25,220 bases of DNA, from positions 1 to 25,220 of the IMG/VR virus record IMGVR_UViG_3300037882_005382; one strand, given 5' to 3'. The position numbers and the translations under genes are program-made. Under the pieces are notes generated by a model. It was not told where the DNA came from, searched no databases, and worked only from the letters and a program-made list of their open reading frames with translations. Source of the DNA: a virus. How positions within the stretch are numbered: the stretch's first letter is position 1; every line of letters starts with the position of its first letter. Shown here in pieces: positions 2,246 through 23,467 of this stretch.

Positions 2246-3574
2246 CTACCAGCCCGCAAAATCCAACATCTCTTCACTCGCAAAATTAATCGAACTCTCC
2301 CCCACGGTCGTAATCCCAGCCCAATCGATCGCCTCATCCCCCGCCGCCATAATTGCCAGGAACAAAGCCCAAGTGCGATCGGCGTGACCATTGGAGTCCC
2401 GATCGGCATCAAAGCGCGGCGTCCCCACAGCGGATACCGATTTTTTCAGCTTATGCAAATCGTCCCGCAGTTCTGGCAGCGGCGGAATCCGAAGGCCCCG
2501 CGTCTCGAATCGGCGCTTTCCTTCCGTCGCCAACGCCAACTTATTCGCCGAGCCAAAAATCACCCCCTCCACCATCGACCCATACTTTTTCTGCGCCCGC
2601 TCCACCACCATCTCGCCCATCCCAGATTGGTCAAAGCAACCCCGTTCAATTCGGTACCGCCCCCATAACCGATCGACGATCGCCTCTTGCTCCTCAAACG
2701 AAATCCGCCGCTCCACCACCAACTCACGCACCCACAAAATATCGCCCACCCGCTCGACGACGATCGCAACCCACAGGTCATTACGCCGAGCAATATCCAC
2801 CCCTAAATAGCAGGGATAGCCCGCATACTCTGACGGCTTCCCAGCCCGCTCATCCTCACAGCTTGCAATCAATTCAAACCCAAGCCAAGCCGAAGCCTCA
2901 TCCAACCATTGCAGCTCAAATTCCTGCGCCCAGGCATCCTCATCCGCCAGAGCCGATCGCAGCTCCACCACATCCCGATCCAACCCCTGCGCCACCGCCT
3001 GATGAATATCGACCTGGTGCTTGGACCAAGTGCCGTCGTTAGACTGCATCAGGTCGTAGAACTTATTCGCTTTTCCATTGGGAGTAGACGTAATCCGCAA
3101 ATCAAACCCACGAGAAACGATCGGGAACATCGCCTTCCAAATCTCCCGACTGTCATGGTGGAACGCAAACTCATCCAAAAAAACATTGGCACTAAACCCG
3201 CGAGCCGTATCAGGATTTGCAGGCAGCGCCGTGATGCGTGACCCATTGGGAAGCTGCGCTTCGAGCGCCTTGTATTTGCCCTCCCACTGATACTCGATCG
3301 TTTCAAACGCCGCCTCATAAATCTTGAGATGACGCTTCACCCCCTCATTCAGAGCCTCATAAGCTTGCCGTTCTCCGCGACTAAGAATGACCCACCGATC
3401 GCGCCCGCCTCTGGACTCCGCAAACAAACAGCGCTGCACAATCTCCAACGTCGTCGTCCAGGTCTTCCCAGTCTGACGCGCGAACATGCCGATTTTGAAC
3501 CGGGACTGATCACGGAGCCAACCCCGCTGGTAGTCATAGAGTTCGATCGCGGGCTTTGATTTTTTAGAGACCAT
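2246..3574 (-). CDS. terL: Terminase large subunit, Mu gp28-like
   Basis: A 442-aa DNA-packaging motor: an N-terminal ATPase that drives DNA into the prohead and a C-terminal RNase H-fold nuclease that cuts it. ATPase motifs are Walker A RQTGKT (33-38), Walker B VFLDEF (131-136) and coupling motif STPNG (163-167). Nuclease acidic residues are Asp260 (LGVDIAR), Asp315 (CFDQSG) and Asp399 (HADRTWA). The length is normal for the family and no lesion is seen. The ATG overlaps the end of the small terminase gene by 11 bp and no strong Shine-Dalgarno is visible, so translation is probably coupled. It is the last gene of a minus-strand operon that ends in a terminator. In Mu this gene is followed directly by the portal; here the portal is 15 kb away on the other strand. 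Confidence 0.95.
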   Translation of the reverse strand: MVSKKSKPAIELYDYQRGWLRDQSRFKIGMFARQTGKTWTTTLEIVQRCLFAESRGGRDRWVILSRGERQAYEALNEGVKRHLKIYEAAFETIEYQWEGKYKALEAQLPNGSRITALPANPDTARGFSANVFLDEFAFHHDSREIWKAMFPIVSRGFDLRITSTPNGKANKFYDLMQSNDGTWSKHQVDIHQAVAQGLDRDVVELRSALADEDAWAQEFELQWLDEASAWLGFELIASCEDERAGKPSEYAGYPCYLGVDIARRNDLWVAIVVERVGDILWVRELVVERRISFEEQEAIVDRLWGRYRIERGCFDQSGMGEMVVERAQKKYGSMVEGVIFGSANKLALATEGKRRFETRGLRIPPLPELRDDLHKLKKSVSAVGTPRFDADRDSNGHADRTWALFLAIMAAGDEAIDWAGITTVGESSINFASEEMLDFAGW

Positions 3575-3995
3575 AGATTGCCGCCGTCACTTCCCTCAGT
3601 CGCTCTGGGTCAAGCGTTCGTGCCTGCCCCACATCTACCAATTCAATCTCAGGTGCCGTCATATCCAACACCTTAAACGCCACCTGAGCCAAGACGTTTG
3701 CGGAGGTGTCAGGGCTAGTCAATAGGGTTTCGATCGCGGCCACCGCTTTAATATTCAGCGTCCGCAATTGCCTAATCGAATCCTCACGAGATTCACTGAT
3801 TCGCTTATCCAACTCCGCCACAAACGCCGGAGATTTTAACCACCGATTTAGGGTCGCGCTCCCAACCCCAAGACGCTCTACCACCACCACCTGTTTATCA
3901 CCCATCGAAAGCATCCCGATCGCCTGCATCTGCAAGGGCTGAAGCCGCTTTTTAGAGTGATTGGTTTTGATTGGTTTTGATTGGTTTTTAGCCAT
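3564..3995 (-). CDS. terS: Terminase small subunit, helix-turn-helix protein
   Basis: A 143-aa probable DNA-recognition subunit that would bind the packaging site and load TerL. After a basic, Lys- and Asn-rich N-terminus comes a helix-turn-helix (about residues 20-53; LQMQAIGMLSMGDKQVVVVE, then LGVGSATLNRWLKSPAFV), a helical middle and a hydrophobic C-terminal segment. I chose the ATG at 3995 because TGAGGG lies 9 bases upstream; another ATG 9 bp earlier leaves no room for that site. The gene overlaps the upstream FHA gene by 8 bp and TerL by 11 bp. A 10-bp tandem repeat (TTGGTTTTGA) makes up codons near the N-terminus. Identification rests on position plus the HTH. Confidence 0.82.
   Translation of the reverse strand: MAKNQSKPIKTNHSKKRLQPLQMQAIGMLSMGDKQVVVVERLGVGSATLNRWLKSPAFVAELDKRISESREDSIRQLRTLNIKAVAAIETLLTSPDTSANVLAQVAFKVLDMTAPEIELVDVGQARTLDPERLREVTAAIYGL
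3961..3990. repeat. 10-bp tandem repeat, three copies, inside the terS start region
   Basis: TTGGTTTTGA, TTGGTTTTGA and TTGGTTTTTA run in tandem. The unit is not a multiple of three, so gain or loss of one unit by slippage would shift the terS reading frame within its first dozen codons, upstream of the HTH. Confidence 0.8.
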
Positions 3996-4818
3996 TATTC
4001 CCATCCCTCAACACCGGAAGGGCCGATCGAAGACTCTCCTCCCCCCGCTCACCCGGACGCATATAAATCAAGCCCGCCACACTTGCCACCATGCCTGCAA
4101 TATTGGCGATTTTCCCGACTTCCTCTTGGGCCTTCGTCGCATTCCACCCGCACACCGAAAGCATGGTGATCGCGAGACCGATCGTCAGATACTTCAGGTG
4201 TTCGTGATGCACCTTCAATCGATCTTCCTGCTGTTGGTCGCGTTCACTGGCCAGCGCAATCGCGGCCCGCACCTCAGTCGAAATCGATCGGAACCCGCGT
4301 TCCATATCCGCCTGTAGATCGCTCTTCAAATCATCGATCGAATCAATGCGTTGATTTATTTCCATCATGGCTTGTTGCTGGAGATTCAGCTCTTGCTGGA
4401 GTTGTTGAAGGTCACGCCGTAGCAATGCGATCGCCTCCAATTCAAATCCTTGAGTTGGAGGTTCTCCTAACTCTAACCGCACCTTGCTAGAAAGCTCCGC
4501 CTTGTAACCATCTCCAAGGAAAATATCAATCTCCATGCCCTCCCCAAAGGTCAGCGGTTCCCGGATTCTTTCCCCACAGAACCAAACACCACTGGCACTG
4601 GGCCTAGACTCCTGACCATCCATCACCAACCACGCATCGCCCGATCGCACCAACGTCGATTGCACCCGCGAACAAGCCTGCACCCCTCGCCCGATTTTGT
4701 AATTCGTCTCAGAAGATCGCCCAAAACTGACAGTAGACTGATTTTTCAAGTCAATCTTGCGAACGGTTAAAAGCGTCCCATCTTTAAATTCTTTGAGTAG
4801 CACATTGTTTTCTAGCAT
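3988..4818 (-). CDS. FHA-domain, coiled-coil, two-TM membrane protein
   Basis: A 276-aa protein. Residues 10-115 match the forkhead-associated fold, which binds phosphothreonine peptides: Gly33-Arg34 (SFGRSS), Ser50-Arg51 (CSRVQST), then AWLVMDG, Ser76-Gly77 in place of the usual NG (SASGVWFCGERI) and a final strand IDIFLGDG. Residues 128-205 are a Gln- and Leu-rich coiled coil. Two hydrophobic stretches follow, about 209-225 and 237-253, with a short charged tail. The ATG at 4818 overlaps the upstream Mor-like gene by 35 bp. It lies between a regulator and the terminase genes, an unusual place for an FHA protein. A membrane-tethered phospho-signal sensor or a spanin/holin-like accessory are possible; neither is shown. 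Confidence 0.72.
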   Translation of the reverse strand: MLENNVLLKEFKDGTLLTVRKIDLKNQSTVSFGRSSETNYKIGRGVQACSRVQSTLVRSGDAWLVMDGQESRPSASGVWFCGERIREPLTFGEGMEIDIFLGDGYKAELSSKVRLELGEPPTQGFELEAIALLRRDLQQLQQELNLQQQAMMEINQRIDSIDDLKSDLQADMERGFRSISTEVRAAIALASERDQQQEDRLKVHHEHLKYLTIGLAITMLSVCGWNATKAQEEVGKIANIAGMVASVAGLIYMRPGERGEESLRSALPVLRDGNNG

Positions 4819-5176: not shown

Positions 5177-5328
5177 GGCTTTTGAGAGATTGAATTGGAG
5201 GCTATTCGTCTTGAGAAAATATTAATATTTATTTAAGAATTAAGCTGTAATGATATCCATAAGTTCTTTCAGGCTAGAAACATTCTATAGGTGGGAATAC
5301 CGTTTCATTGCTGACGTATGGCAGTCCT
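5177..5328. promoter_or_regulatory. Divergent promoter region with AT-rich palindrome
   Basis: This is the only gap between the minus-strand regulator/terminase operon and the plus-strand head-tail operon, so it must hold promoters for both unless transcription enters from elsewhere. AAATATTAATATTT (5217-5230) is a perfect 14-bp palindrome and a wider imperfect CTT...AAG dyad surrounds it. TTGAGA at 5211 with TAAGAA 17 bp later is a weak sigma70-like candidate. Mor-type activators bind dyads beside weak promoters, so this palindrome is the best operator candidate. Confidence 0.45.
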
Positions 5329-6270
5329 ATGAGCAAATTAGTAGAAATTTTTCGACAGGGAACGCACATTGATAGTGCAGGTGTTACCCGTACATTTACG
5401 GAAGATACCCTTAAACAAATTCAAGATTCCTACAATCCTGAAAAACATACGGCTCCATTCCTGGTTAATCACGATGAATCAAAGCCCAACCGAGGAATTG
5501 TCGATCGCCTTATAAGGATTGGTTCCTCGCTCTATGCCGCCGCGAAAAATATTGACGCCGATTTCCAAAAGCAGATTAACGATCGGAGACTGCCTGCGCT
5601 ATCAGCCGCACTCTATTCCCCCGAAGACCCTCGCAACCCCAGACCGGGAATGTGGGGGCTTCGGCATGTCGCAGCCGTTCAGATTCCAGCGGTTAAGGGA
5701 ATGAAGCAACCCGAATTCAAAGAATGCGACAAGCTTTTGACGATCGAGTTTGCAGAGCTAGCCGTAGAGGAGGAAGAACCTGAAGAGGAAGAACCTGAAA
5801 CTAAACCTGAAACTAAACCTGAAACAACGGAGCCACCAATGACTGAGGAAGAACTCAAGGCCCTTAGAAAACTATTAGACGAGCGATCGACAGAACTGGA
5901 TAAAAAATCCGCCGTCTTGGACGCAGCAGAGTTTCAAACCTTTGCTGAAGCCTTGCTAAAGGAAGGCCGTGTCTTTGATTCCAAACTCGCAGCGGCGATC
6001 GCGGTCACGCTCCCCAGTGAAGCGGAAAGCACGATCGCATTCGGAGAAAAAGCAGAACCGATTCAAACGCGATCGGCTTTCAAAAAGTTCCTAGAAGCCT
6101 TGCCTAAGACGGTCGAATTTGGGGAGGTATCAGCGGGCGCGGCTCCGGCGAAGTATGACGCGAATGCGATCGCCACAGCCGCCCGTGACTACAAATCTGA
6201 GCAAGAAGCCAAGGGCAATTCCATTAGCTTCTCTGAAGCGGTGGCCCATGTAGAAAAAGGAGTGAAATAA
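5329..6270 (+). CDS. Mu gpI-like head maturation protease with in-frame scaffold
   Basis: A 313-aa two-part protein. Residues 1-145 are a Mu I-type prohead protease: EIFRQGTHIDSAGVTRTF, FLVNHDESKPNRGIVDRL with candidate catalytic His48, and LPALSAALYSPED with candidate Ser92 or Ser97. A flexible acidic repeat linker follows (EEEPEEEEPETKPETKPETT, 147-166). Residues 171-313 are helical and scaffold-like. The family processes the prohead and removes scaffold. The ATG at 5329 is chosen because the family motif begins right after it; an upstream in-frame TTG at 5308 adds seven unconserved residues. The ribosome site is weak. First gene of the plus-strand morphogenesis operon. Confidence 0.88.
   Translation: MSKLVEIFRQGTHIDSAGVTRTFTEDTLKQIQDSYNPEKHTAPFLVNHDESKPNRGIVDRLIRIGSSLYAAAKNIDADFQKQINDRRLPALSAALYSPEDPRNPRPGMWGLRHVAAVQIPAVKGMKQPEFKECDKLLTIEFAELAVEEEEPEEEEPETKPETKPETTEPPMTEEELKALRKLLDERSTELDKKSAVLDAAEFQTFAEALLKEGRVFDSKLAAAIAVTLPSEAESTIAFGEKAEPIQTRSAFKKFLEALPKTVEFGEVSAGAAPAKYDANAIATAARDYKSEQEAKGNSISFSEAVAHVEKGVK
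5828..5841 (+). promoter_or_regulatory. Internal Shine-Dalgarno and ATG for the nested scaffold
   Basis: CGGAG (5828-5832) stands six bases before an in-frame ATG (5839-5841), a better initiation site than that of the full-length gene. It sits exactly at the linker between protease and scaffold, as in Mu, where gpZ starts inside gene I. Confidence 0.7.
5839..6270 (+). CDS. Nested scaffold protein, Mu gpZ-like, in frame within the protease gene
   Basis: Internal translation from the ATG at 5839 would give a 143-aa protein identical to the C-terminal half of the protease ORF. It begins MTEEELKALRKLLDERSTEL and is largely helical and charged, as expected of a removable scaffold that nucleates the prohead and is then digested. 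It shares the frame and stop of the longer gene. Support comes from the strong internal ribosome site and the known Mu I/Z arrangement; expression itself cannot be seen from sequence. Confidence 0.65.
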   Translation: MTEEELKALRKLLDERSTELDKKSAVLDAAEFQTFAEALLKEGRVFDSKLAAAIAVTLPSEAESTIAFGEKAEPIQTRSAFKKFLEALPKTVEFGEVSAGAAPAKYDANAIATAARDYKSEQEAKGNSISFSEAVAHVEKGVK

Positions 6271-18795: not shown

Positions 18796-20952
18796 TTGGA
18801 TCGTCCCACCTTTGACGAAATTGCATCGATCGCAGATGGCCGCGACATTACCCGGCCCTGGTTGGCTCCCTTGCTGGAGAGTCAAGATGAGATTTTGGAG
18901 ACCAAAGGTGGGGGCGATTTGCTCGTCTATGAACAGGAATTGACGGATACGCAGATTGAGAGCGGGTATCAGCAACGGTTTAGTGCTTTTATTGGCTGTG
19001 AAACTGATGTGATTCCCGGTGGGAAGAAGCGCCTTGATATTAAGGCGGCGGACTTTGTGAGAGAGCAGCTTAGCGGGATTAATTGGGACGACATTTGTGA
19101 AAAGCAACTCTACGCCATCCATTACGGCTTTGGGGTGGCGGAATGTCTGTGGATGCGAGATGGGCAGAATATTGGGTTTGATGATACTCGCGATGGGATT
19201 CGGGTGCGGAATCGTCGGCGGTTTAAGTTTGCACCCGATCGCTCCCTGAGATTGATTGTGTGGGGCGATATGTTGCAGGGCGAGACGATGCCCGATCGGA
19301 AGTTTTGGGTGTTGCGATCGGGGGGCGATAATCACGATGAACCCTACGGTCGCGGGCTAGGTCACAACCTTTACTGGCCTGTCTTTTTTAAGCGGAACGA
19401 TATGAAGTTCTGGCTGAGGTTTTTGGAGAAGTTTTCCCAGCCGACCGTGAAAGTCGAGTATCCGTCTGGGATGCCTAAAGATGAACAGGATAGGCTTTTG
19501 CAATCGGCCTATCGCATGGCATCGGCTTCGGCGTTGAAGGTGCCCCAAGGGACTGTGATTGATTTCTTGGAGGCGGGCAGGTCTGGCACTGCGGATTATG
19601 TGCAGCTTTGGGAGTTGATGGACGCGGCGATTTCCAAAACGATTCTGTCTCAAACAATGACGACGGATAGTGGTTCGTCATTGTCCCAGGCCCAGGTACA
19701 TGAGGGCGTTGCGTCGCGGTTGATTAAGCGCGACGCGGATTTGCTGTGTGGGTCGTTTAATCGATCGATCGTGCGGTGGCTGGTGGATTGGAACTATCCC
19801 GGCGCTGCCTATCCCAAGGTTTGGAGAAAGATTGATCCGGCTGAGGATTTGAAGGCAGTGGCCGATCGCGATCGGGTGCTGTTTGATATGGGCTTTAAGC
19901 TCACCCCAGAGAAGGTTGTTGAGGTCTATGGCGAGGGCTATTACGATCCGTCTCAGCTTAAGGATGAGGCCGTTGATAAGCCGCCTTTGGTCTCGGTGTT
20001 GGGTGTGGGGGCTACGACGGCGCTGGTGGGCTTCTTGCAGCAGATTGGACAGATGGGCTTGAAACGGAAGAATGCGATCGCGACGTTGACAACGGTTTTT
20101 GGGATTGGGGCGAATGAAGCGGAGTTGATGATTCCTGATGATGAGTCTGCGGAACCAGGTTTGGATCAATTGTTTGGTGGGGTGGCGGATGCGGCGGATG
20201 TGGCGGATGCGGCCCCAGATACGGCGGAGCCTGCTACGGCTTTTTCTGAAGCGGTGGAGTTTGCGGACAAGAAATGTAACCCGGCGAAGTCTCACCTCTG
20301 TATTGGAAAAACGGGGAAGGGGAGTTGCGTTAGTTTGACGAAGAAGTGTAGGGTTCCTGTGACGGGAGCAGCTCGTGAAGCGTCGGATTATACGGCGGCT
20401 CAGGCTAATCTTGAGACAGAGCAAGCAACCACTCCCGAACCTGCAAAGCCTCAGTCGATCGCCGATCGCATTCAATCAGGCGATTTGCCAGAACCTTTCG
20501 ATCAAGAAAGATTTAATTTTGATGACCGGGATTTTGTTGTAAACGGTCCAGAAAAAGATAGCGAAGTCTCGCTTGGTGGAATTTATTATCAAAAAACGCT
20601 GGGTTTGACCGTGTTTACGATCGCGTTTGCTGTTGATGGAGAGTACGAAAGAGAAGACCCTGTAACGGATGCTGAAAAAGCTCATAATAAAAGAGTGGCC
20701 TTGGCTGTTTTGAAAGAAGCGAGAGATTGGGTTAAAGGGTTGCCGGATGGTTTGATTGTCCACAACAATCCATCAAAAGGGGATAGTGCAGCGAGTGGAC
20801 GAGTCTCCATCTATTCGAGGGCGGGGTTTGGTCCGCTTGACGAAGAGGGATCGCAGTATGGGGTTGTCAAAGGTGGGAAGATTGTGCCATTAAATGAAAA
20901 CGAAGCCAATCAATACTCTGAAGCTAGGGCTTCAAGGAAGAAAAAAATATGA
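18796..20952 (+). CDS. Portal protein (Mu gp29/DUF935) with unusual C-terminal cargo domain
   Basis: A 718-aa protein. Residues 1-480 are the DUF935 portal: SIADGRDITRPWLAPLLESQ, YQQRFSAFIGCETDVIPGG, FWLRFLEKFSQPTVKVEYPS, SGSSLSQAQVHEGVASRLIK, all expected for the 12-mer ring through which DNA enters and leaves. After an Ala/Asp-rich linker comes a four-cysteine cluster (Cys494, 502, 511, 518; CNPAKSHLC) and a domain ending in LPDGLIVHNNP and VSIYSRAGFGPL, resembling the last part of a GNAT fold. The normal DUF935 C-terminus is missing and lies in the 158-aa gene downstream. GC falls to about 43% in 20521-20700 versus about 57% in the core (hand count). The start is TTG 18796; an in-frame stop lies 18 bp upstream and no clear ribosome site is seen. 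Confidence 0.88.
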   Translation: MDRPTFDEIASIADGRDITRPWLAPLLESQDEILETKGGGDLLVYEQELTDTQIESGYQQRFSAFIGCETDVIPGGKKRLDIKAADFVREQLSGINWDDICEKQLYAIHYGFGVAECLWMRDGQNIGFDDTRDGIRVRNRRRFKFAPDRSLRLIVWGDMLQGETMPDRKFWVLRSGGDNHDEPYGRGLGHNLYWPVFFKRNDMKFWLRFLEKFSQPTVKVEYPSGMPKDEQDRLLQSAYRMASASALKVPQGTVIDFLEAGRSGTADYVQLWELMDAAISKTILSQTMTTDSGSSLSQAQVHEGVASRLIKRDADLLCGSFNRSIVRWLVDWNYPGAAYPKVWRKIDPAEDLKAVADRDRVLFDMGFKLTPEKVVEVYGEGYYDPSQLKDEAVDKPPLVSVLGVGATTALVGFLQQIGQMGLKRKNAIATLTTVFGIGANEAELMIPDDESAEPGLDQLFGGVADAADVADAAPDTAEPATAFSEAVEFADKKCNPAKSHLCIGKTGKGSCVSLTKKCRVPVTGAAREASDYTAAQANLETEQATTPEPAKPQSIADRIQSGDLPEPFDQERFNFDDRDFVVNGPEKDSEVSLGGIYYQKTLGLTVFTIAFAVDGEYEREDPVTDAEKAHNKRVALAVLKEARDWVKGLPDGLIVHNNPSKGDSAASGRVSIYSRAGFGPLDEEGSQYGVVKGGKIVPLNENEANQYSEARASRKKKI

Positions 20953-21131
20953 CGTTTGAACAATTTATGACGATTTTTCATGAGGAAGCGGACAAGGCTG
21001 ATGACGCTGGGCTGACCGAGGATGAGACTCTAGCCGCCTTTGACTCAAGGATAAAAGCGGAAGGCATCACTGAGGAAGAAAGCACCAAGTACCATGGAAT
21101 GATGCTCGGTTCGATCGGGTACCTTATTTAA
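20949..21131 (+). CDS. Small acidic protein, candidate immunity or partner of the portal cargo domain
   Basis: A 60-aa protein with strong negative charge (MTFEQFMTIFHEEADKADDA, LTEDETLAAFDSRIKAEGIT). The ATG overlaps the portal stop (ATGA) and AAGGAAG lies seven bases upstream, so it is translationally coupled to the portal. Predicted helical, without TM or signal. Size, acidity and position right after a variable C-terminal domain resemble immunity or antitoxin genes; this is inference. It could instead be a small assembly factor. Confidence 0.65.
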   Translation: MTFEQFMTIFHEEADKADDAGLTEDETLAAFDSRIKAEGITEEESTKYHGMMLGSIGYLI

Positions 21132-21133
21132 AA

Positions 21134-21610
21134 ATGAATCTACCTAAATCCCCCACTCCCGAACAACTCAAGACGATCGTACAAGCCATCCTCCGAGACC
21201 AATTGGAGGATGACGCGGTGGTGACGAAGCTGGAGATTCCCGGTGATAAAACCTGGACAGCCTACTACACCACCCAAAAGCGATCGTTTGTCTGTACGTA
21301 CCAGGATGGCTATTTTGAAAAGGGTCCAGTGAACGCAACAGACTCCGTAGACTTTACGGAGTCTACGGAGTCTGAAGAATCGGACACCGTAGACCTGTAT
21401 ACCGATCGCCTCCGCACCACAGCAGGCAAAGAGGTAGACGGCTGGGTGAGCCAAATATCGGGGCTACTCGACAGTGCTGGAGACCTGAATAGTTTCAGCG
21501 AGACACTACTCACGCTGTACCCAGACCTGAAGGGCGATCGGTTGCGAGACATTATGGGTGATGCCGTCCTGGCCGCGAGCATTGCTGGGAGCTTAGAAGG
21601 CGATGCCTAG
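21134..21610 (+). CDS. Hybrid protein ending in the displaced DUF935 portal C-terminus
   Basis: A 158-aa protein in two parts. Residues 1-65 are an unknown small domain (QLKTIVQAILRDQLEDDAVV, WTAYYTTQKRSFVCTYQDGY). After an acidic Ser/Thr/Glu linker (68-88), residues 91-156 carry VDGWVSQISGLLDSAGDLNS, FSETLLTLYPDLKGD and MGDAVLAASIAGS, the pattern I know from the extreme C-terminus of Mu gp29-type portals (helices ending LYPDL and AxLAG). The stop overlaps the MuF start by 8 bp, as a native portal end would. It thus looks like the end of the portal gene cut off by an insertion and now made as a separate protein. A 10-bp stem (21340-21364) lies in the linker DNA. Confidence 0.75.
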   Translation: MNLPKSPTPEQLKTIVQAILRDQLEDDAVVTKLEIPGDKTWTAYYTTQKRSFVCTYQDGYFEKGPVNATDSVDFTESTESEESDTVDLYTDRLRTTAGKEVDGWVSQISGLLDSAGDLNSFSETLLTLYPDLKGDRLRDIMGDAVLAASIAGSLEGDA

Positions 21611-22826
21611 TTATCCGTGGCAACAACTTCCCTTTCAAGAGGCGATCGATTACTTTGCGACGAAGCAGAATATCGATACGGATTCTTGGCGGGATTTGCA
21701 GGGCCTCGACTACGACGTAGCTTTTGCGGTGGCCGGGGCTAAGGGGGCGCTGTTGCAGGATATGCGGGACGCGGTGGAGAAGGCGATTACGGAAGGGACG
21801 ACGCTGCAAGAATTTAGGAAGGATTTCGATCGGATTGTGCAGTCTCGCGGTTGGAGTTATAGCGGCGATCGGGATTGGCGAACCAACACCATTTACAACA
21901 CCAATCTCCGCACGGCCTACGCGGGGGGACGGTGGGAACAGATTCAGCAGAATAAGGCCAAGCGCCCCTATTTGCAGTGGCGACATGGGGGAAGTCGTGA
22001 CCCAAGGCCGCTACATATTGCCCTCGATCGCAAAGTATTTAGCCTGGACGATCCCTTCTGGCAGAGTATGGGCAATCCACCGATCGGTCATGGGTGCCGC
22101 TGTTCGGTTTTTGCGTTGGGCGATCGGGACCTGGAGCGCTTGAAGCTGAAGGTCGAAAAAGCCCCAGTGTTGGGGAGTGAGTATGGTGGGATTCCGGTGG
22201 AGCCTGATCCGGGTTGGGGTGGTGGCCATGGGCGCAGCAATCCAGAGCAGCGGCGTAAGCTTTTGGTCAGCATCACCCAGAGGCTTCAGCCAGAATTGGC
22301 CGTGGCCGTCGAGCAAGAGGCGCGGTTTGCGTCGCTTAGATTTAGTCAGGAATTTGGGGCAGTTGAAAAGTCCCAGATGCAGGCGATTCGCGATCGGTCT
22401 CGCCAAGAACTGGCTAGAACTGGGAGTGATGATTTGCGTCGGGCTGATGGTCTCTACAGCGTTATTCAGGAAATGGCGGATGACTCACCGCAATTTTTTA
22501 GGGGTGTGATTGATGGGTTGGGAGATTTGCAGGCGAGTGCGATCGTGACTCAATCTTCGGATTCACTGGTGTTGAATCATTTGGTCTCTTCCCCATGGAA
22601 TTTGCGTGGGATGCCCAAGACGGGGCAGCAGCTTAAAGGCGCGGGAGGCCGACTAATGGCTGATGTTGCGCGAGAAAGTATTGAGTTAGGATACGAAGGC
22701 AGAATCCGATTAAGCGCTAGCCCTGAAGCTCGTCATTACTACGAGAATTTTGGTTTCGTTGCAGATGGAAATCGGATGGTTCTTACACCTAGCCAAGCAC
22801 AGAATTTAATTGGAGCTTTTTTATGA
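21603..22826 (+). CDS. Mu gpF/gp30-like (MuF) head protein fused to a GNAT acetyltransferase-like domain
   Basis: A 407-aa protein. Residues 9-180 are the MuF domain of minor head proteins: LPFQEAIDYF, WRTNTIYNTNLRTAYAGGRW, PYLQWRHGGSRDPRPLH and the PPIGHGCRC motif (159-167). After a charged helical linker, residues 290-407 look like a GNAT acyltransferase: LVLNHLVSSPWNLRG strand-turn, QxxGxG motif at Gln343-Gly348 (QLKGAGGRLM) for acyl-CoA pyrophosphate, and the C-terminal ARHYYENFGFV. Typical MuF head proteins lack this tail. GC drops to about 46% (22681-22800) against about 60% in the MuF part (hand count). MuF proteins with C-terminal toxins are an established polymorphic toxin class of temperate phages. 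The ATG overlaps the previous stop by 8 bp with AGAAGG close upstream. Confidence 0.88.
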   Translation: MPSYPWQQLPFQEAIDYFATKQNIDTDSWRDLQGLDYDVAFAVAGAKGALLQDMRDAVEKAITEGTTLQEFRKDFDRIVQSRGWSYSGDRDWRTNTIYNTNLRTAYAGGRWEQIQQNKAKRPYLQWRHGGSRDPRPLHIALDRKVFSLDDPFWQSMGNPPIGHGCRCSVFALGDRDLERLKLKVEKAPVLGSEYGGIPVEPDPGWGGGHGRSNPEQRRKLLVSITQRLQPELAVAVEQEARFASLRFSQEFGAVEKSQMQAIRDRSRQELARTGSDDLRRADGLYSVIQEMADDSPQFFRGVIDGLGDLQASAIVTQSSDSLVLNHLVSSPWNLRGMPKTGQQLKGAGGRLMADVARESIELGYEGRIRLSASPEARHYYENFGFVADGNRMVLTPSQAQNLIGAFL

Positions 22827-22969
22827 AGACGATCGAAGAAATTAAGGCAGCAATCGCGACGGCTGATGAGTCTGATGCGACCTATACGGACGGTTCAACG
22901 TTGGCCGAGCTAAAAGCATCACAGGCTGCGCTCCCCGATAAACCCAAGCCAGAGGCCAAACCCGCCTAA
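22823..22969 (+). CDS. 48-aa protein, candidate partner/immunity for the MuF-GNAT protein
   Basis: A 48-aa ORF (MKTIEEIKAAIATADESDAT ... KPEAKPA) whose ATG overlaps the MuF stop (ATGA), with TGGAG about eight bases upstream. It is acidic in the first half and Lys/Pro-rich at the end. Its size suits an antitoxin or small immunity protein, or a minor head factor. The GCGGGGCATTT palindrome starts two bases after its stop. No homology can be claimed. Confidence 0.55.
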   Translation: MKTIEEIKAAIATADESDATYTDGSTLAELKASQAALPDKPKPEAKPA

Positions 22970-22970
22970 A

Positions 22971-23017
22971 ATTTGCGGGGCATTTCGCACCGCCTCTCTC
23001 AAAAATGCCCCGCAAAT
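22971..23017. repeat. GCGGGGCATTT palindrome, copy 2
   Basis: ATTTGCGGGGCATTT (22971-22985) pairs perfectly with AAATGCCCCGCAAAT (23003-23017), with a 17-base loop unrelated to the other copies. It occupies the whole gap between the 48-aa gene and gpG, ending four bases before the GGAG ribosome site of gpG. It could attenuate or shield that site. Confidence 0.85.
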
Positions 23018-23029
23018 ATTGGAGAAATC

Positions 23030-23467
23030 ATGGCTCAAGTCATTGTCGAAGATACTCAACTCCAAAGCGCGATCGATGCCCTGATCGATCGTATGGGTGA
23101 TCTGCGTCAGCCGATGTCCGATATCGGCGAGTACCTGCTGCTCAGCACCCGCGATCGGTTTGATGGCCAGAAAGACCCGGAAGGCCGATCGTGGACCCCT
23201 TTGACCCCGAACTATGCCAGACGTAAGGCGAAGAGTTCGCGGGCGCTGAAGGGGATTCTGACGTACTCAGGGATACTGCGGGATACGATCGCGTACCGGG
23301 CGGATGCGGTATCGGTGACGGTGGGCAGTAACCGAATCTATGCGCCGATTCAGCAGCTCGGTGGGAAGACGGGGCGCGGTGGGACGATTCCGCCTCGGCC
23401 TTTTTTGGGAGTGAGCGCAGCCGATCGGACTGAGATTGCGGCGATCGTGGCGGATTGGCTTAGTTGA
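23030..23467 (+). CDS. Phage virion morphogenesis protein, Mu gpG-like
   Basis: A 145-aa protein of the phage virion morphogenesis (Mu gpG/tail completion S) family, needed for joining head and tail. Motifs: DIGEYLLLSTRDRFDGQKDP, GRSWTPLTPNYARRKAKSSR, ILTYSGILRDTIAYRAD and the C-terminal IPPRPFLGVSAADR. I chose ATG 23030 (ATTGGAGAAATCATGG); an in-frame ATG upstream (22973) would read through the palindrome. The stop overlaps the convergent minus-strand gene by 8 bp. It is the last gene of the plus-strand morphogenesis run, matching the portal-MuF-gpG order of Mu. Confidence 0.88.
   Translation: MAQVIVEDTQLQSAIDALIDRMGDLRQPMSDIGEYLLLSTRDRFDGQKDPEGRSWTPLTPNYARRKAKSSRALKGILTYSGILRDTIAYRADAVSVTVGSNRIYAPIQQLGGKTGRGGTIPPRPFLGVSAADRTEIAAIVADWLS

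What the first reader, a model, noticed from the sequence alone, without database searches (positions are those of the whole stretch)
20271..21400. Portal gene appears split by an inserted cargo/immunity cassette
Seen: the portal ORF departs from the DUF935 pattern near residue 490, where a four-cysteine CNPxKSH cluster and an AT-richer domain begin, and stops at 20952. A 60-aa acidic gene follows with ATGA overlap. The next ORF ends in the LYPDL and AxLAG helices typical of a DUF935 C-terminus and overlaps MuF as a portal end should. Family knowledge: Mu gp29 portals keep that C-terminus in the same protein. Inference: about 1.1 kb was inserted, giving the portal a new C-terminal domain and leaving the old tail as a separate protein. 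Similar short sequences (SEAVEFAD and TDSVDFTES) at the two edges may mark the junction. A domain fused to a portal would sit at the DNA exit vertex, which would be a new site for virion-borne effectors.
Basis: partly seen in the sequence, partly recalled or inferred. Interest (0 to 1): 0.85.

Follow-up and report, generated by a model that had tools for sequence, protein, structure and literature searches.

The report
Cargo cassette splits phage portal gene
In a virus of cyanobacteria, a cassette carrying a probable injected protein has been inserted into the gene for the DNA gateway of the virus head and has cut it into two genes; the same arrangement with other cargo occurs in at least four other cyanobacterial prophage lineages, always at a short motif that is probably where the virus's own protease cuts, which would explain why the split is tolerated.

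Summary
The insertion is real. A close relative (L006, 82% identical) has an uninterrupted 556-aa DUF935 portal; its C-terminus is residues 71-158 of ORF158, and a profile of 72 other portal tails finds ORF158 (E 3e-18) but not the window's portal ORF. The insert (about 20269-21346) runs between two copies of one motif, VEFAD and VDFTE, and brings a Cys4 linker plus effector onto the portal, a 60-aa gene, and a new N-terminal domain on the tail. It is not unique: five cyanobacterial lineages have the tail in its own ORF, each with a Cys4 linker and a different effector on the portal; protease-scaffold genes carry similar insertions (a full split in one, a linker fusion in another). The motif is strongly enriched in the portal linker and the scaffold, and its F or L variant agrees between the two, so it is probably the maturation-protease site. 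Mu virions lack the last 124 portal residues. Most likely the effector is loaded via the portal, released by the protease inside the head, and ejected with DNA; the tail works in trans. Portal-effector fusions are known; gene splitting at this site by a recurring cassette appears new. Cleavage, ejection and immunity are inferred.

The parts
18796..20253 (+). Portal core and linker (DUF935 / Mu gp29 type), residues 1-486
   Evidence: Pfam PF06074 44-379 E 1.7e-94; PHROG 113 8-477 E 5.9e-94; 73 synonymous vs 23 non-synonymous changes against L005
20254..20268 (+). Left junction motif VEFAD (probable maturation-protease site; left edge of the insert)
   Evidence: Aligned with AEFAE of the intact relative L006; motif class enriched in portal linkers, 43/72 vs 5.5 expected
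20275..20349 (+). Cys4 (C4) linker CNPAKSHLCIGKTGKGSCVSLTKKC
   Evidence: Best of 253 window ORFs with a C4 profile built without it: residues 487-527, E 0.0024; matching form CDPSKSFVCGASCQKNGRNC in Nodularia phages
20482..20949 (+). Effector domain, portal residues 563-718; GNAT-like by motif only, fold not established
   Evidence: Profile from L152 (MuF C-terminus) and L185 (stand-alone C4 protein) hits residues 606-711 at E 7.5e-14; alignment A11; model pLDDT 49, best Foldseek hits are GNATs but not significant
20949..21131 (+). 60-aa acidic ORF overlapping the portal stop (ATGA); candidate immunity or chaperone, untested
   Evidence: 7 synonymous / 4 non-synonymous vs L005; a different small ORF sits at this place in L008 (77 aa), L154 (137 aa), L122 (64 aa)
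21140..21331 (+). AB domain (predicted helix and four strands), N-terminal domain of ORF158 supplied by the cassette
   Evidence: hhalign probability 90% to AB domains of L008/L154/L151/L178/L180, but over the first 23 residues only; predicted H9-23 E29-34 E41-46 E51-57 E60-65 (low confidence); 6 synonymous / 0 non-synonymous vs L005
21347..21361 (+). Right junction motif VDFTE (second copy of the motif)
   Evidence: Position; aligned region; same layout in L008 (GDFAE), L154 (PEFAA), L180 (VFAEE)
21383..21607 (+). DUF935 C-terminal tail, now a separate protein (ORF158 residues 84-158)
   Evidence: Tail profile E 2.7e-18; PHROG 113 455-516; 86% identical to the end of the intact portal in L006
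21603..22826 (+). MuF minor head protein with a C-terminal GNAT domain
   Evidence: PF04233 E 2.8e-19; PF13673 residues 342-391 E 2e-5
5308..6270 (+). Maturation protease-scaffold; source of the recurring motif (TIEFAEL, QTFAEAL, IAFGEK, VEFGEV, ISFSEA)
   Evidence: Family membership from profile; sequence; motif enrichment in scaffolds 126 vs 14.8 expected

Best explanation
A motif-to-motif cargo cassette has been inserted into the portal gene at the codons of the junction motif (F-A/G/S-E/D type) between the mature portal core and its C-terminal tail. The cassette supplies, in order: a Cys4 linker and effector, read in frame as a new C-terminus of the portal; a stop; a small gene; and a new start with an AB domain that becomes the N-terminus of the detached tail, followed by the second motif copy. 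Proposed mechanism: in the procapsid, twelve portal subunits carry the effector inward; the phage's maturation protease cuts at the motif as it cuts the scaffold, freeing effectors into the head and trimming the AB domain from the tail, whose assembly role it plays in trans; the effectors are ejected with the DNA. SHOWN here: insertion, empty site, conservation of all pieces, recurrence with different effectors, motif enrichment and its agreement between portal and scaffold. INFERRED: cleavage, trans function of the tail, packaging, ejection, effector activity, immunity.
For: Empty site in L006 and split in L005. Tail profile E 2.7e-18 in ORF158. Apart from two probable frameshifts (L021, L086), all ORFs carrying a DUF935 tail without a portal core are cyanobacterial: five lineages (window/L005, L008, L154, L151, L180) plus one where the tail is fused to MuF (L156). 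The portals of all five carry the C4 linker and different C-terminal domains: GNAT-like (window), zincin motif HEMGH (L008), ART-like by inspection (L154), ParB-like by inspection (L151), unassigned large domain (L122). In L178 the protease-scaffold gene is split the same way, protease-EIEFAV-C4 then AB-AEFAA-scaffold; a second scaffold carries a C4 fusion (L195). In L123 a Pfam InPase domain (E 8.7e-26) is inserted in frame at the same place with the tail retained. Motif: 43/72 portal linkers vs 5.5 expected, 1.18 vs 0.07 per 100 aa in the core; scaffolds 126 vs 14.8 expected. Phages with L-type scaffold motifs (including Mu, AALSA) have L-type portal linkers, p 0.0009. The last 124 residues of Mu gp29 are absent from the virion structure, attributed to protease I (PMC11915804); T4, phiKZ and SPN3US prohead proteases cut after Glu (PMC9026906). 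Tail-MuF and portal-tail-MuF fusions (L156, L039) fit later cleavage.
Against: No cleavage, virion or ejection data for any of these phages. The motif could be a docking site rather than a cleavage site. Loss of 124 residues in Mu could partly be disorder; the Mu motif (residue 428) lies 40 residues after the last ordered residue. The portal-scaffold agreement of the motif is not corrected for phylogeny, and the motif was defined from sequences that are also in the test set. Homology of the window's AB domain to the others is firm only over its first helix. The effector fold is unresolved. The five lineages were counted by divergence, not by a tree.
Confidence: 0.7

Rival explanations
1. Same insertion, but the motif is a docking peptide (scaffold, protease or shell binding) and is not cut; the effector stays attached to the portal and acts at the vertex or leaves with it.
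For: Enrichment and F/L agreement would look the same for a binding motif; scaffold repeats are common binding elements.
Against: Mu virions lack the portal C-terminus; the tail appears in the portal, alone, fused to MuF, or in a portal-tail-MuF polyprotein, which fits cleavage better than a fixed joint; twelve bulky fused domains at the portal would have to be accommodated.
Confidence: 0.2
2. The portal is a decaying prophage gene: an accidental fusion and frameshift, with ORF158 a remnant.
For: The host is unknown and the record is a metagenomic fragment.
Against: Few non-synonymous changes in all pieces against L005, none in the AB domain; same architecture in divergent lineages; neighbouring genes intact.
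Confidence: 0.03
3. Effector-immunity cassette acting between lysogens: the 60-aa acidic ORF neutralises the effector in the producing cell, as in MuF polymorphic toxins (an addition to, not a replacement of, the main model).
For: A different small ORF follows the effector gene in L008, L154 and L122; ATGA coupling; the same effector family in MuF of L152 is followed by a 61-aa ORF.
Against: Small ORFs also lie elsewhere in these operons; no homology between them was shown; the effectors may be counter-defence enzymes that need no immunity.
Confidence: 0.45

Closest known systems
Polyvalent proteins and portal-effector fusions (Iyer et al. 2017, PMC5512222)
   Same: Effector domains (InPase, PBECR, 2H) fused to portal or MuF and predicted to be packaged and injected; L123 is an InPase case
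   Different: Passages read there do not mention splitting of the portal gene, a Cys4 linker, an AB domain, or placement at a maturation-protease-like motif; that paper reports a paucity of polyvalent proteins in cyanobacteria
MuF polymorphic toxins (Jamet et al. 2017, PMC5576092)
   Same: Variable C-terminal domain on a head protein next to the portal; in L152 the same effector family is on MuF
   Different: Here the carrier is the portal, and its own C-terminal tail is displaced into another gene
T4 internal proteins and Alt (capsid-targeting propeptides cut by gp21; PMC9026906)
   Same: Proposed mechanism: cargo carried in by a head-assembly component, freed by the prohead protease, ejected with DNA
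   Different: Carrier is the portal or protease-scaffold; unrelated sequences; insertion into an existing gene
Phage Mu gp29 portal (NC_000929; PMC11915804)
   Same: Same family; C-terminal 124 residues missing from the virion; AALSA motif shared with the Mu gpI/Z scaffold
   Different: Uninterrupted gene, no effector

Membership tests
DUF935 / Mu gp29-type portal (PF06074) | Portal_Mu core domain | tested here: met
   E 1.7e-94, residues 44-379
DUF935 / Mu gp29-type portal (PF06074) | C-terminal tail in the same polypeptide | tested here: not met
   Tail profile hits only ORF158, E 2.7e-18
Polymorphic effector system on a head protein (MuF/portal type) | Conserved carrier with variable C-terminal effectors across relatives | tested here: met
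   Five split portals with different C-terminal domains
Polymorphic effector system on a head protein (MuF/portal type) | Cognate immunity gene | not testable with these tools
   Small ORFs present, function unknown
Polymorphic effector system on a head protein (MuF/portal type) | Effector has toxic or enzymatic activity | not testable with these tools
   Window effector has no Pfam, NCBIfam or PDB match
T4-like internal (ejected) protein | Cut by the prohead protease at a defined motif | tested here: inconclusive
   Motif enrichment and agreement with the scaffold; no cleavage data
T4-like internal (ejected) protein | Ejected into the host with DNA | not testable with these tools
   Needs infection experiments
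GNAT acetyltransferase (window effector) | GNAT fold or family match | tested here: inconclusive
   No Pfam hit; model pLDDT 49; best Foldseek hits GNAT, E 0.18; no profile link to the MuF GNAT
Intein or self-splicing insert | Known splicing domain joining the two halves | tested here: not met
   No such domain found by Pfam, NCBIfam or PHROGs; the halves are in separate ORFs with their own starts

The most novel reading that the evidence does not exclude
The junction motif (the phage's own maturation-protease site) is a standing insertion target: segments [C4-effector-stop ... start-AB] are exchanged motif-to-motif between virion genes (portal, protease-scaffold, MuF, free-standing cargo), splitting the recipient gene while the protease makes the split invisible in the mature particle; the C4 and AB domains may bind each other and hold the two halves together until cleavage.
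Probability: 0.4. Interest if true: 0.82.

Novelty: new variant of a known kind. Interest (0 to 1): 0.68.

Why it matters
If right, it shows how an essential structural gene can be split to carry cargo without losing function, because the joint is one the virus cuts anyway. It gives a sequence rule (a motif shared by portal linker and scaffold) for predicting maturation cleavage sites in Mu-like phages, a tag (C4 linker) for finding virion-borne effectors in cyanobacterial phages, where few had been noted, and a possible place for loading foreign proteins into Mu-like heads.

Tried and rejected
Searches of the extension against plasmids, phages, PDB, Pfam, NCBIfam and genome contigs gave no relatives; a relative (L152) was found only after reading portal neighbourhoods in related genomes, and others with domain profiles. 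Structure predictions of the effector and of ORF158 were of low confidence (pLDDT 49 and 47); only secondary structure was used, and the GNAT assignment was not claimed. Profile comparison of the effector with the MuF GNAT domain was negative. A ribosomal frameshift rejoining the pieces was considered from the A-rich portal end and rejected by reading: it would run into the 60-aa ORF, not the tail. Portals without tails in Magnetococcales looked like further splits but no separate tail was found there. L021 and L086 separate tails look like frameshifts or masked sequence, not cassettes. No Pfam family explains the C4 linker or AB domain. PADLOC gave nothing. Promoter-like sites in the region are not above chance. 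Literature on Nodularia and Aphanizomenon cyanophage proteomics gave no usable statement on these proteins in the main text.

Full report
OBSERVATION. The window is a 25,220-base IMG/VR virus record of unstated host; GCGATCGC-type repeats suggest a cyanobacterial host (my reading). Portal ORF 18796-20952 matches Pfam Portal_Mu at residues 44-379 and PHROG 113 at 8-477. ORF158 (21134-21610) matches PHROG 113 positions 455-516 with residues 88-157. A profile built from the last 100 aa of 72 non-redundant DUF935 portals, leaving out the close relatives, hits only ORF158 among 253 window ORFs, at E 2.7e-18. The portal lost its tail and ORF158 has it.

EMPTY SITE. Viral contig L006 carries an 82% identical portal that is uninterrupted (556 aa) and continues from AEFAEKEPDTVDLYTDR into the tail that in the window is ORF158 71-158 at 86% identity. 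L005, an independent contig, has the split form. At the left edge the window DNA follows L006 through GGAGTTTGCGGACAAG / GGAATTTGCGGAAAAA; at the right edge it resumes at GTAGACTTTACGGAGTC...GACACCGTAGAC. The motif of the intact gene is thus present at both edges (VEFAD at portal 487-491, VDFTE at ORF158 72-76).

CONSTRAINT. Window against L005: synonymous / non-synonymous changes are 73/23 in the portal core, 10/6 in the C4 linker, 4/3 in the effector, 7/4 in ORF60, 6/0 in the AB domain, 21/5 in the tail. All pieces evolve as proteins. Synonymous divergence of the effector (0.04) is much lower than that of its flanks (0.23 core, 0.32 tail), as expected if the effector segment was exchanged recently.

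RECURRENCE. Petrachloros mirabilis ULC683 (L008) has the same order with another effector: portal core-APEFAQ-C4-zincin motif (HEMGH), a 77-aa ORF with ATGA overlap, a 173-aa AB-GDFAE-tail protein, MuF. G464 (L154): portal-PEFAQ-C4-ART-like domain, a 137-aa ORF, AB-PEFAA-tail, MuF. G549 (L151): portal-C4-ParB-like domain, then a tail ORF that itself continues SVEFAAK-C4-DUF3626/ART, a stand-alone AB ORF, and MuF-DFAAP-C4-C39 peptidase. G307 (L122 with L180): a 1266-aa portal with AB and C4, small ORFs, AB-FAEE-tail, MuF. A systematic scan of all fetched loci found tails outside a portal core only in these five lineages, in L156 (tail fused to the N-terminus of MuF, followed by VEFAEAEY), and in two probable frameshifts (L021, L086). 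L123 keeps the tail and has an InPase domain (Pfam E 8.7e-26) inserted in frame between AEFNE and NFAES. Effector names other than InPase, C39 and DUF3626 rest on motifs read by eye.

NOT ONLY THE PORTAL. In G464 (L178) the protease-scaffold gene is split in the same way: protease-EIEFAV-C4-short domain, then, with ATGA overlap, AB-AEFAA-scaffold. In G549 contig C210 (L195) a scaffold carries a SLEFGS-C4 fusion; no downstream scaffold half could be read there. C4 proteins also occur free-standing with a short leader ending in [DE]F[AS] (L186, L200, L203) and with an AB domain in front in isolated Nodularia phages, where the C4 form CDPSKSFVC resembles the window's CNPAKSHLC. In 390 cyanobacterial genomes, 7 have strong C4 hits and 6 of those also have a DUF935 portal, against 19 of 390 overall (hypergeometric 4e-8). 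The window's effector family is found on MuF in L152/L169 and free-standing behind a C4 in L185 (profile E 7.5e-14).

THE MOTIF. F[AGS][ED] occurs in the portal linker of 43 of 72 tail-bearing portals (5.5 expected by shuffling), 1.18 per 100 aa against 0.07 in the core and 0.26 in the tail. In the scaffold part of 32 protease-scaffold proteins there are 126 against 14.8 expected. Mu uses AALSA: repeated in gpI/Z and once in gp29 at residue 428. Phages whose scaffold motifs are L-type have L-type portal linkers (5 vs 22 phages, one-sided Mann-Whitney p 0.0009). These tests are not corrected for phylogeny. A motif that is multi-copy in the scaffold, single-copy in the portal linker and varies together in both is what a maturation-protease site would look like. 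The cryo-EM structure of Mu lacks the last 124 residues of gp29, which the authors ascribe to protease I, citing Grimaud 1996 (PMC11915804). T4, phiKZ and SPN3US prohead proteases cut after Glu following a short motif (PMC9026906). Cleavage in the present phages is an inference.

MECHANISM. If the joint between portal core and tail is cut during maturation, three things follow: the tail can be encoded elsewhere (own gene, MuF N-terminus) at little cost; a domain placed at the joint is carried into the procapsid by the portal and then freed; and each added piece needs a motif at its edge, which is what is seen. The order [C4-effector | AB] at split sites and [AB-motif-C4-effector] within single proteins (L122, L123, L209) is the same unit read from different starting points, which suggests motif-to-motif exchange from arrays of such units. 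That last step is the most speculative (0.4).

LIMITS. The AB homology of the window protein is firm only for its first helix (hhalign 90%, 23 columns; HMM E 0.034). The effector has no established fold. The 60-aa ORF is a candidate immunity protein only by position. No virion data exist.

KNOWN OR NEW. Portal-effector and MuF-effector fusions are known (PMC5512222, PMC5576092). I found no description of a portal gene split by such a cassette at the maturation site, nor of the C4/AB pair; searches were limited to open-access text.

Noticed in passing
L178:2165-3864: Protease-scaffold gene split by the same kind of C4 / AB cassette as the portal; a second scaffold with a C4 fusion is in L195:486-1109 (minus strand).
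   Followed up: partly
L201:8-1333 and L204:127-2244: A portal of a different family (not DUF935) carries a C4 linker and an ADP-ribosyltransferase-like domain at its C-terminus.
   Followed up: no
L019, L020, L024, L027, L028, L030, L031, L032, L034, L036: Magnetococcales genomes hold DUF935 portal-like ORFs of about 390-440 aa without the tail; in L019 the neighbours are ordinary host genes, so these may be orphan or domesticated copies.
   Followed up: partly
window 22353-22826 and 22823-22969: MuF ends in a GNAT domain (68-69% identical in L005 and L006) and is followed by a 48-aa ORF, possibly a second effector pair in the same phage.
   Followed up: partly
window 2246-4004 and 18796-23467: The terminase genes are on the minus strand at the left while portal-MuF-gpG lie after the tail genes, unlike the Mu order; a tyrosine recombinase-like ORF is at 1-1059.
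   Followed up: no
window 20482-20949 against L005:7666-8133: Synonymous divergence of the effector segment is about one sixth of that of the portal core, pointing to recent exchange of the effector alone.
   Followed up: partly
L209:9110-10987, L210: Isolated Nodularia phages carry an AB-C4-DUF3626 protein next to a DUF935 portal that lacks the tail, and an InPase-bearing minor head protein; these isolates could be used for virion proteomics.
   Followed up: partly
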